Positions 11,723 through 54,065 of a stretch of 64,000 bases of DNA are shown here, piece by piece (the first letter of the stretch is position 1; each line of letters starts with the position of its first letter). Position numbers and translations under genes: made by a program. The notes below the pieces were generated by a model. The model was not told where the DNA came from and made no database searches. It worked only from the letters and a program-made list of their open reading frames with translations. The stretch lies in assembly GCA_029204225.1 (NCBI GenBank), contig CM055097.1:13376721-13440720 (forward strand), read 5' to 3'. This stretch comes from Diphasiastrum complanatum. Lineage: Eukaryota > Streptophyta > Lycopodiopsida > Lycopodiales > Lycopodiaceae.

Positions 11723-11840
11723 GTCTGCCTTGACTACAACTTTCTTAATTACTAACCAACTTTCATGTGTTTTGCACTTGAATGCTGTTGATCCATGTTA
11801 ATTATGTTTGATACCATACACGTCTGTTTTTTAGCTGCAT
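11723..11840 (+). other. Start of a dioxygenase intron, cut by repeat R
   Basis: Follows the GTCTGCC donor of exon 2. No acceptor or third exon is visible before R-related sequence begins near 11,840. Confidence 0.45.
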
Positions 11841-13256
11841 AGAATGTGATAAGGAATGTCTCCTCTCTAGGCTCACTTATGCATACCCTATATGTTCCTG
11901 ATTAGAGTTTCAAACTAGAAATGCCACAGAGGATGAGGAAAGAATTCTATTCAAGTAAAACAATATTGTTTTTTTTCTTGCCCGCACCACTCCCAAGCCG
12001 TACACCATTCCCAATCATATAACCAGATCGTGTACAATTATGGTTAAGCAAATTTTTTTTGTACTCATGGTCACGTTCTGTTAACAAATATGATTTTGAA
12101 TGTATATTCTCTCTTGACATTTGAAATCAATATGAGCGCCATCTTGAAATTAAAAACAAAATATGAGTACCATCTTGGCATTGAAAACAAAATCCAAGCG
12201 CCACCTTGACATTGAAATCAAAATATCAGTGTCATCTCCTATTTGGATATGGAGGGGATCACCATTATGGAAGCATTCATGAAAATTGGTTATTTTCCAT
12301 CAGGTAAGAATATATTTGCATTCAAATATTTTTATAGTACTTCTATTATGAATACTATGAACGTTGTGACTGGTTTTGTACTTTTCAAGATCACGACTTT
12401 GTGTCATTTTCATATGGACATTCCTATTGACTTGGCGGCCTTCATAAAACAGAGGAGTCAAAGGATCAACGATATCTCTGCTGAAAAAGTTTTACATTAT
12501 AGGAGTGAAGGAAAAAAGGATTTGGATTTGTGGACAGATGGGTCTTTGTATCCTCAAGATCCTAATACCCTCCTACATCATCTTGTCTTATCCTCAACAA
12601 CTCAATTAGTCATATGGATATGGAATGGGCATAATGGTTCCTTGGGATATTCTGAATAATTACAAAATTATGGAAATACATTTTCAATGCAGAGGATTCA
12701 ATTCTTGGAGAGTACTCAAATCAGGTGTATGTCCTCTTACTGTCATGAGAGAGAGAATGTAATACAAAAGTTGATGTAAGAAAATCATGAATCATTAGAA
12801 AAAGTTATTTCAGATATTAGAATAGAATCTGAATAGATGTAAGTAATATTGCATTCTATTCATTCAGATAATATGCAATTACTGAAAGATGTGGAACTAT
12901 TGACAAAGAAGTCTAAAAACTACAAACAAAAGTGACAATCTTGCAAGGATATTCAAAATCTCTCAAGAGGAGGTTATTGGAACAGAAGGAGCCGTGCATT
13001 CATTTACGTTTTTGGGTTGGGTTGATTCTCTTCTTGGATCTTGGTTTTTCGCTTATCTAGGCATCAATGGCTCTAGATCTTCTCCTCTTGAGGTTGATCT
13101 TCTCAAGGGAGGTGAACAATGGAAAGGAAACCTACCTAATGGATCCTAACGATCTCTTCCAAAGGGGATTTACTAACACCTATTTTGCTTGAGTGTGATT
13201 TTGTGGATTAGTTGGATGAAGGCAAGTGCTAAAGATCATTCAAGAATGTCATAGCA

Positions 13257-13968
13257 TGATTAACAACAACAAACAAGCATTCATCATCTACAATCAATCA
13301 TACACAAGAAAATAGGAGAAATCCACACAAAAAGCAAGAATGGTAGGAGGAGATACTCTCTCTCTCTCTCTCTCTCTCTCTCTCTCTCTCTCTCTCTCTC
13401 TCTCTCTCTCTCTCTCTCTCTCTCTCTCTCTCTCTCTCAAGGAAAAGTGATTACAAAATGGTGTCACATCCCTCTTTATGATCAAAGCTAGGGTTAGGGA
13501 TTTTGGTGCACCCAAAACCATGTGCCATAAGAACTTGACTTTATATAAAGTTTTAAACCAAATTGCATTTGAAACTATTTGGGTCATTTTTCATTTTAGG
13601 CCCATTCGAGCATAGATCTACTTTTACTTCTCATGCCATAGGCTGACAAGTACAATGCACCTTCTACAGGTGTCTGACGTTACATTATAGGTAGATCTAA
13701 AACCCTATGCTGACTCGGCCATGATTTTATTTCCGTCGCCGTAAAATGTGTTGGTGAGGCATTGGGCTTTGTTTTTGCTCATTTTATTTCCGCAACCTGT
13801 CGACTTCTCTGGCATTGGTGTTCCCAGTACACATGGATTCTGGAATCTGTGAGACTGTGATTTGTCGACGCTACGTAGTTTGGCCATTCGACTCCGTCGC
13901 TTGATATTCGTTATGCTCTTTTAGTAGCTGGAATCCATTAGACGAATCTTCATGAGAATGATCTAACA
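13257..13968 (-). repeat. LTR of R copy 1
   Basis: Minus-strand TGTTAG start preceded by a GTGGGG purine run and CA end followed by TGCTATGACATTC, a degenerate match to TGGTATCAGAGC. Length is 712 bp including the 83-bp repeat tract. It aligns with 36,588-37,645. Confidence 0.6.
13356..13438. repeat. (CT)n microsatellite, about 83 bp
   Basis: Uninterrupted CT on the + strand, GA in the sense of the R LTR that contains it. Confidence 0.98.
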
Positions 13969-14364
13969 CATCCCCACTATTGTGAATATGGTGAGAGTCC
14001 CTTGGCACTTGCGTTTGTCTTCAGCGTGGCGAAGGAAGGTGGAAAAGGGGTATAAACAAGAGGGGGGTGAGAATCGACGAAAAGTGAAGAAAAAAATTTT
14101 GCAACAAAATTTAACTTTAGAGGGGGGAACCAGAGAGAGTGATTGAGGAAATAAAAGAAAAATAAGAAAGATAAAATGAAACGAAGGGTCAAAAACTAGA
14201 ACATAAAAGTGAGTCCTTCAACGCTTTTTGTGGACTTCTTTTTCTTGTTTTTAATTTTCTTCAAATAGTTTTTTTTTTGAAAGATACATATGATAGTTAC
14301 ATGCTTCATGAAGCTTTCTCAAGTTGGTTTCCCTTCGTATCTTCGGCATCTCGAATCTGACTCG

Positions 14365-14621
14365 ACCATGATTTTATTTCTGTCGCCGTAAAATGTGTTG
14401 GTGAGGAGTTGGGCTTTGTTTTTGCTCATTGGCCGGTCCACAACTTGTCGACTTGTCTGGCATTGGTGTTCCCGGTACATATGGATTCTGGAATCTGTGA
14501 GACTGTGATTTGTCGACGCTCCTTACCGTAGTTTGGCGGCTCGACTCCGACGCTTGATATTCATTATGCTCTTGTAGTAGCTGGAATCCGTTAGAAGAAT
14601 CTTCATGAGAATCTTCTAACA
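14365..14621 (-). repeat. Partial R LTR with short conserved ORF
   Basis: Begins TGTTAG on the minus strand just after GTGGGGGCA. Contains an open frame (LLQEHNEYQASESSRQTT, then YVPGTPMPDKST) that recurs at 34,145-34,360. It breaks off at a junction also seen at 36,170. Confidence 0.55.
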
Positions 14622-52075: not shown

Positions 52076-52795
52076 CTACTCTGAATCAGGTACTGAAAAG
52101 ACCTTCTGGTACCAGTGCTGATGCACAGCTATAGGATCAATGCGAGTGTCGTTAGTGCATGGAGAAATGGTAGAGGTGGATGGAAGATCAGTTTTGGGGG
52201 GTGATGAAATGATAGGTGGTGAAGAGCTGGCATGAGGCGAAATGATGCGAGGTGGTGAAATGGCACGAGGCGGTATAATGCCGAGAGGAGGAGATGTGAT
52301 CATGGAATCGGGCATGTTTGGATCAATTTGGAGGGTGGAGGAGGTAATTTTGGCCCGTCTGGCGTACTGGAGATCCTGGTCGAAGTTGCGGTCTCCGCCA
52401 GTTTGGAGGTCGAAATGAGGGAATGTGAGTTGGAGGTTTTGGTAGTCGATGGATTCTATGAAGGAGCAAGGATGGTGGATGGATGGATCTTGGCCAATGG
52501 CATTATAATGTGCCAAGGCCGCATTGTAGCAGATAATGAGGGTGGCAGGATGGTATTGGTGGCAATCATAATAGAGTGTCCGGAGCTCATTATAGGCGAG
52601 GCAAAGGGCTTCAGGAAGGGTAGCGGTGGTGGTATGGCAATGCTTAATGTGCTCTGCCAATGTGCCTAATGGCTTCTCTACTCCTACTGGCTTGTATTCT
52701 GACGCATACCGTACCCACATGTGTTGTACATAAACAACTTTATTTCTAATTAATGCAGTTGTTATGTAAATAAGCATATATGAGCATTTTCTCAT
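52076..52795 (-). CDS. R retroelement ORF, longest open copy, unknown protein
   Basis: 239 codons, the only copy open throughout. The start at MRKCSYMLIYITTAL may instead be the next Met. Residues 1-20 are moderately hydrophobic. Residues 30-110 form a His/Tyr-rich probable globular part (EHIKHCHTTTATLPEALCLA, LYYDCHQYHPATLIICYN, SIHHPCSFIESIDYQNLQLT). Residues 150-210 are a Pro/Ser/Ile-rich linker with repeated PP-x-x-IS units. It ends VHQHWYQKVFSVPDSE before TAG. I recognise no gag, protease, integrase or transferase motif. All copies share the same TAG, followed by a conserved PTLFVKKYPDVK frame, so the true product might be longer. It may be a non-autonomous retroelement protein or a captured host gene. 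Confidence 0.55.
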   Translation of the reverse strand: MRKCSYMLIYITTALIRNKVVYVQHMWVRYASEYKPVGVEKPLGTLAEHIKHCHTTTATLPEALCLAYNELRTLYYDCHQYHPATLIICYNAALAHYNAIGQDPSIHHPCSFIESIDYQNLQLTFPHFDLQTGGDRNFDQDLQYARRAKITSSTLQIDPNMPDSMITSPPLGIIPPRAISPPRIISPHASSSPPIISSPPKTDLPSTSTISPCTNDTRIDPIAVHQHWYQKVFSVPDSE

Positions 52796-53021
52796 GTCTT
52801 AGGTTTAAATGTGAAGCTTGTGATATTTTAATGATTAAGAGCAATCATTGATGTGCTTATCTATGTGTGGATATGGTGAGAATTACATTGAATGAATTTT
52901 CCCAAGTTTACCAAAACATGGTGATAACTTTTAAGGTAAAAAACGTATTTCATAATTTGCCAAAGCCTATTCAATGTGCACAGAGAATGTTTATAAAAAG
53001 GCCCACTAAGTTCATACAGCT

Positions 53022-53188
53022 AGAGAGAGAGAGAGAGAGAGAGAGAGAGAGAGAGAGAGAGAGAGAGAGAGAGAGAGAGAGAGAGAGAGAGAGAGAGAGA
53101 GAGAGAGAGAGAGAGAGAGAGAGAGAGAGAGAGAGAGAGAGAGAGAGAGAGAGAGAGAGAGAGAGAGAGAGAGAGAGAGAGAGAGAGA
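53022..53188. repeat. (GA)n microsatellite, about 167 bp
   Basis: In the R leader of copy 6, longer than the 96-bp partner in copy 5. Confidence 0.98.
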
Positions 53189-54065
53189 ATCTTCCCTTTT
53201 TAAAACCGATGGGTTATTTGAAACTTTCACTTGATGATTTTATAGGCATTGTGCTATTTTGGCACTTTTGTTTGAGAAATGTTCTCTTTGAGTCGAGTCT
53301 GAAGAAAGGATGATTCGGCAAATCGGAGTCAAAGAATGCTTAATAGCAGTGTCAACATCAATGTCATATGATGTAAATACAATCGTTGACAGCTTATGGG
53401 TTTCAATAATCATAGGTCTAGCTGGAATAATTGGTGATCGATGACGAGAAAGATGAGTGCATAGCACCAATACACAAGTTATTGTTGTTGGCGATTTTCA
53501 TTTTGTGAATAGTCATCTTTATCTTACATAAATAATGCTAAGCAGGCTTTTGGCTTAGGTATTTGCTTGTGCTTGGTATAGAATTGAACTTGTGTGGGCA
53601 GTCTGACCAACCCCAAGAGCACCACTGCACAGCTTCAAGCATGGGTAGTTTTTGTTATTTGTTTAATTTACTAAGCAAAGCTAATTAGTCTTGCATGTAA
53701 TAAAGTCTCCTTTAGACTCCTTTAGATAAGGAAAGTTAGATGTTTTGTTTTTCGGATCGGATGTAGGCGATTACGTTTTGTGATCTCTTTCAGCAATCTA
53801 TTGGCAAATTCTTATTTTTTTTTAATGTTAAATCATTTGATGAATTGAACTTATGGATGTTGGCCTACTTTTATTGTATAACTTGGAAGTGTTTTGAATT
53901 GTGGTTGAAACTGCATAGATAAGAGAAGCAAAAGAATATGAAGTGCGAAATTATGTTGAGGGCAGTAGTCACATTGTTGCCATAAATGGAAATGATTTAA
54001 TGATTGCAATGTACTATAACGAGATCTTTTTTTGAGCAATACAAAAGATTGGAGAGAATGACATT

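What the first reader, a model, noticed from the sequence alone, without database searches (positions are those of the whole stretch)
11840..54065. R: candidate undescribed non-autonomous LTR retroelement carrying an unknown ORF
At least six copies share one order: PPT-like GTGGGGGCA, LTR starting TGTTAG, TTAATCA end, TGGTATCA primer-like site, leader of about 3 kb, ORF of about 240 codons, second coding block. No gag-pol domain is recognisable. The ORF is His/Tyr-rich with a Pro/Ser linker and is open in one copy.
Basis: partly seen in the sequence, partly recalled or inferred. Interest (0 to 1): 0.75.

Follow-up and report, generated by a model that had tools for sequence, protein, structure and literature searches.

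The report
Decayed retroelement-like repeat, duplicated locally
In what looks like a plant genome, pieces of an old retrotransposon-like repeat with an unrecognised protein-coding stretch have been copied many times within one small region, largely by ordinary DNA duplication that carried along a neighbouring enzyme gene.

Summary
PPT-like/LTR-start signals occur at four places, the LTR end with a primer-like word at two, the ORF at four, the second block at six. One run (36579-42777) has everything in the stated order, and a 721-bp insert splits it. No copy seen has LTR-internal-LTR; both complete LTR-like blocks sit between one unit's 3' end and another's leader, as in tandem arrays. The window lies in a 1.74-Gb assembly; of 44 scored ORF matches, 14 are long close copies (85-100%), 13 in C6:13.40-13.635 Mb and one on a short contig. 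Several share breakpoints with unrelated DNA (copia pieces, a 2OG-dioxygenase gene), so DNA duplication made those. The ORF has no passing Pfam hit, no PDB or IMG/VR relative, and no sign of purifying selection among close copies. Twenty-three more diverged matches (70-85%) lie on other contigs, so an old dispersed family is likely, perhaps a non-autonomous LTR element; the genome server did not answer again, so their structure is unseen. Verdict: a degraded new member of a known kind; low to moderate interest.

The parts
36588..37645 (+). LTR-like block of copy B (TATTAG here, TGTTAG in others; ends TTAATCA), with an internal duplication of about 0.39 kb; PPT-like GTGGGGGCA just before, TGGTATCA just after
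13257..13968 (-). LTR-like block of copy A, preceded by a second 3'-end unit (PPT-like at 13977) and followed by leader piece 1
11831..15571 (-). Copy A: second block, 3' end (partly duplicated), LTR-like block, leader pieces 1, 2, 4 and start of 5; no ORF
9332..9690 (-). Leader piece 7 of copy A, on the far side of the dioxygenase gene
22520..25508 (+). Copy F: shortened leader, ORF (24011-24809), second block, 3' end
33197..34347 (+). Second block, 3' end and LTR start upstream of copy B
34337..36097 (+). Leader piece 5 plus antisense dioxygenase piece lying inside an LTR start
37646..42776 (+). Copy B: leader, ORF (41495-42261, with a 28-bp deletion), second block
38079..38799 (+). 721-bp insert in the leader of copy B, flanked by ATTCT; its last 132 bp plus TGGTATCAGAGC also start copy D; absent from A and L003
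46947..51069 (+). Copy D: tail of the insert, leader, ORF (50021-50815), part of the second block
51074..54100 (-). Copy E: shortened leader, open ORF (52798-52076, 240 aa), second block, 3' end; lies tail to tail with copy D
9700..11829 (+). 2OG-dioxygenase gene (DIOX_N and part of 2OG-FeII_Oxy), antisense to the repeat, between leader pieces 5 and 7 of copy A

Best explanation
The repeat is a decayed, probably non-autonomous LTR-retroelement-derived unit: LTR-like block of about 1 kb, leader of about 3 kb, unrecognised ORF, second block, 3' end with a PPT-like tract. Inferred: long ago copies spread through enzymes supplied in trans by another element, leaving the diverged relatives on other contigs. 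Shown: in C6:13.40-13.635 Mb several copies were multiplied by DNA-level duplication, in both orientations, carrying copia pieces and a dioxygenase gene along. Tandem duplication or LTR recombination (inferred) explains why the LTR-like block lies between one unit's 3' end and the next leader. The ORF is passively copied and decaying among the close copies.
For: 13 of the 14 long close ORF copies lie within about 235 kb of C6 and one on a short contig. Shared breakpoints with unrelated DNA: A/B across a copia junction, 3,486 aligned bp at 94.1%; B, L005 and L006 across another copia junction, 3.7 kb at 93.6-94.0%; A and L004 across a dioxygenase junction, 98.5% over 1,449 bp. 3' end-LTR-leader order in A and B, second block-LTR-leader in L003. 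64 synonymous against 259 nonsynonymous changes, fraction 0.198, expected 0.253. No gag-pol in copy D.
Against: Not every close copy was tested for shared breakpoints. The diverged relatives on other contigs (23 of 44 matches) show that some dispersal took place by an unseen route. Three of nine ORF copies are free of stops and frameshifts. The LTR reading rests on border motifs, not on a complete element, and the primer-like word varies.
Confidence: 0.6

Rival explanations
1. A genuine, separately inserting non-autonomous LTR element family (LARD-like, or TR-GAG-like if the ORF is a very diverged gag); the window cluster is mainly nested insertions.
For: Border motifs in order; relatives at 70-85% on other contigs, 23 of 44 matches; no gag-pol in copy D.
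Against: No LTR-internal-LTR copy and no target duplication around a unit seen; shared breakpoints with unrelated DNA; long close copies confined to one region and one short contig.
Confidence: 0.25
2. Not a retroelement: pieces of a local duplicated region and of an old coding sequence, with LTR-like motifs by coincidence or from a separate solo LTR.
For: Mosaic module order between copies; 12 of the 23 diverged matches begin at query bases 72-76, so the first 23 codons seem not to belong to the old segment, and codon 24 onward has no start codon there; the primer-like word varies.
Against: PPT-like tract, LTR start, LTR end and primer-like word stand at the borders of one block that also holds a TATA-like box seen by eye.
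Confidence: 0.15

Closest known systems
Tandem LTR-retrotransposon arrays in plants (PMC11899658; abstract and Discussion read)
   Same: LTR-like block shared between one unit's 3' end and the next unit's leader.
   Different: The paper's arrays are flanked by target duplications; none was found here, copies are also inverted and broken, and they carry host and copia DNA.
Large retrotransposon derivatives (LARD) and TR-GAG elements (search listing only; definitions recalled)
   Same: No pol found in the parts searched; long leader; at most one unrecognised ORF.
   Different: Paired LTRs not shown; the ORF does not match any gag model in Pfam.
Retand-type gypsy elements with additional ORFs (PMC11963269; passages read)
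   Same: A retroelement-like unit with an extra coding region of unknown role.
   Different: Retand extra ORFs lie mainly antisense between pol and 3' LTR; here no pol is seen and the ORF is in the sense of the LTR.
Gene capture by plant transposable elements (PMC13317346; passages read)
   Same: A host gene piece lies inside repeat units in more than one copy.
   Different: The dioxygenase keeps intron-like DNA between its two domain-coding parts and shares DNA breakpoints, which fits duplication better than capture through RNA.
Template-switch compound LTR insertions (PMC1950507; abstract read)
   Same: Compound units joined at an LTR.
   Different: Here the shared junctions include unrelated copia and gene DNA.

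Membership tests
LTR retrotransposon | Two LTRs flanking one internal region | tested here: not met
   Not met in the window or in L003-L006, L008 (those loci are 3.7 kb each, too short to hold a full unit); dispersed relatives unread
LTR retrotransposon | Target-site duplication around the element | tested here: inconclusive
   No unit with two outer ends was found to test
LTR retrotransposon | PPT before and primer-binding site after the LTR | tested here: inconclusive
   PPT-like tract at four LTR starts; primer-like word exact at one of three LTR ends, 8 bases only
Autonomous Copia/Gypsy element | gag-pol domains | tested here: not met
   None in six frames of copy D or in the second-block/3'-end frames searched
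TR-GAG | gag domain | tested here: not met
   No gag model passes for the ORF or second block; a very diverged gag is not excluded
LARD | Paired long LTRs with a non-coding internal region | tested here: inconclusive
   Pairing not shown; internal region lacks known domains in copy D
Tandem LTR array | LTR shared by adjacent internal regions | tested here: met
   Order 3' end-LTR-leader in A and B, second block-LTR-leader in L003
Described repeat family | Match to a Repbase/Dfam entry | not testable with these tools
   No repeat library on hand

The most novel reading that the evidence does not exclude
The ORF plus second block is the remnant of an undescribed protein of an old, widely dispersed plant mobile-element family, unrelated to known gag, pol or env, whose complete members survive elsewhere in this genome.
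Probability: 0.2. Interest if true: 0.5.

Novelty: new member of a known kind. Interest (0 to 1): 0.28.

Why it matters
It changes a claim of many retroelement insertions into one of local DNA amplification that also copied a dioxygenase gene, and it leaves one open point worth a look: a dispersed, unrecognised coding segment.

Tried and rejected
Captured-gene reading of the leader: a protein-like antisense stretch near 49100-49560 gave no Pfam match above cut-off and no PDB match in the two frames tried, so dropped. ORF against PDB: none. Second block against PDB: three chains at E 1.1-1.2 for one part and none for the other. ORF in IMG/VR: no relative. Rfam and tRNA: none in the window. Weak Pfam matches below cut-off (MSS51_C for the ORF; Atrophin-1 for copy D; PcfJ for the second block) were taken as noise. 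Structure prediction was never accepted. The idea that the 721-bp insert is the repeat's own LTR was set aside because A and L003 run through that point without it; it begins TG but does not end CA, so what it is stays open.

Full report
What is there. The window is C6:13376721-13440720 of a 1.745-Gb assembly in 5176 contigs. It is rich in copia elements; with the dioxygenase and RRM genes this points to a plant (inference). One copia has 654-bp direct repeats at 99.5% (54847-55500 and 60334-60987) around a minus-strand pol. Between 9.3 and 54.1 kb lie mosaic copies of another repeat. I cut it into modules and mapped them on the window: LTR-like block, leader pieces 1-7, ORF region, second block, 3' end.

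Counts. PPT-like tract plus LTR start: 4 places; LTR end plus primer-like word: 2; ORF region: 4; second block: 6. Copy A (minus, 15571 to 11831, with a further piece at 9690-9332) has no ORF; D and E lack an LTR-like block; F has a shortened leader and no LTR-like block.

LTR question. Both LTR-like blocks in the window are preceded by a 3' end and followed by a leader. L003 shows second block-LTR body-leader. That is the order of a tandem array, as described for plant LTR elements in PMC11899658 (abstract and Discussion read); a template-switch origin of LTR-sharing elements is proposed in PMC1950507 (abstract read). No copy seen is LTR-internal-LTR, though the fetched loci are only 3.7 kb each. 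The primer-like word is TGGTATCA at 37646, TGCTATGA in copy A and TGCTATCA in L003. Controls: the PPT-like/TGTTAG pattern is commoner than in shuffles (5 against 0.86); the looser LTR-end/primer pattern is not (6 against 4.4).

How the copies arose. The ORF search found 492 candidates, scored 40 and listed 44 matches, so its counts are lower bounds. Of the 44, 14 cover most of the query at 85-100%: 13 in C6:13.40-13.635 Mb and one on contig C2604. Seven shorter pieces lie in the same C6 region. The other 23 are at 70-85% on other contigs, six of them at C3:22.23-22.45 Mb. Shared breakpoints with unrelated DNA show DNA-level duplication: A/B across a copia junction, 3,486 aligned bp at 94.1%; B, L005 and L006 across another copia junction, 3.7 kb at 93.6-94.0%; A and L004 across a dioxygenase junction, 98.5% over 1,449 bp, the dioxygenase part alone 99.8% over 1,070 bp. 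L008 holds a shortened ORF-second block-3' end unit directly before a second unit. D and E meet tail to tail at 51069/51074. Not every close copy was tested in this way: 5 loci outside the window were fetched.

The ORF. Its only Pfam match is far below cut-off (MSS51_C, 14.2 bits against 27); no PDB match, no relative in IMG/VR. It ends with a TAG in all four window copies aligned; at the A and 33-kb junctions with copia DNA the codon reads CAG. The second block continues in frame after this codon and breaks at a TGA in the two copies whose translation I read there. Eight copies compared with E give 64 synonymous and 259 nonsynonymous changes, a fraction of 0.198 against 0.253 expected without selection; the comparisons share one reference and are not independent. 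Three of nine copies (E, L003, L004) have no stop or frameshift; D has two stops, F one, L008 two, B a 28-bp deletion and one stop, L005 and L006 a 1-bp deletion each. Twelve of the 23 diverged matches begin at query bases 72-76, so the first 23 codons seem not to belong to the old conserved segment. Six-frame reading of copy D shows no gag-pol; the LTR-like block and leader piece 1 were not searched.

The host genes. A 2OG-dioxygenase gene with DIOX_N and part of the 2OG-FeII_Oxy domain lies antisense between leader pieces 5 and 7 in copy A. A 913-bp piece of it at 98.4% sits with another leader piece inside an LTR start at 34337-36097. The junction between the gene and leader piece 7 recurs in L004. 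An RRM-coding stretch (E = 7e-6; it looks like U2B''/U1A, recalled) stands just upstream of copy D.

Conclusion. Shown: mosaic copies, local DNA duplication with passengers for the copies tested, no complete element in what was read, no gag-pol in the parts searched, no sign of purifying selection among close copies. Inferred: origin from a non-autonomous LTR element and mobilisation in trans. Not reached: the dispersed relatives, because the genome server answered only once. Until they are read, membership in an LTR-element family stays open.

Noticed in passing
54847-60987: Copia element with 654-bp direct repeats at 99.5% and a minus-strand pol reading frame of 932 aa with integrase and part of the reverse transcriptase.
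   Followed up: no
46623-46784: RRM-coding stretch (Pfam RRM_1, E = 7e-6) that looks like a U2B''/U1A snRNP exon (recalled), just upstream of copy D; other exons were not found by a motif scan.
   Followed up: partly
3900-7600: Minus-strand copia gag (Retrotran_gag_2) and Pol_BBD remnants.
   Followed up: no
C3:22232709-22448694 of G000: A second local cluster: six of the diverged ORF matches, all at 70-71%; not read.
   Followed up: no
L008: Shortened ORF-second block-3' end unit directly followed by leader pieces 6-7 and a full ORF unit; one search lists similar fragment-plus-full pairs at C6:13576445-13578971 and 13596130-13598656.
   Followed up: partly
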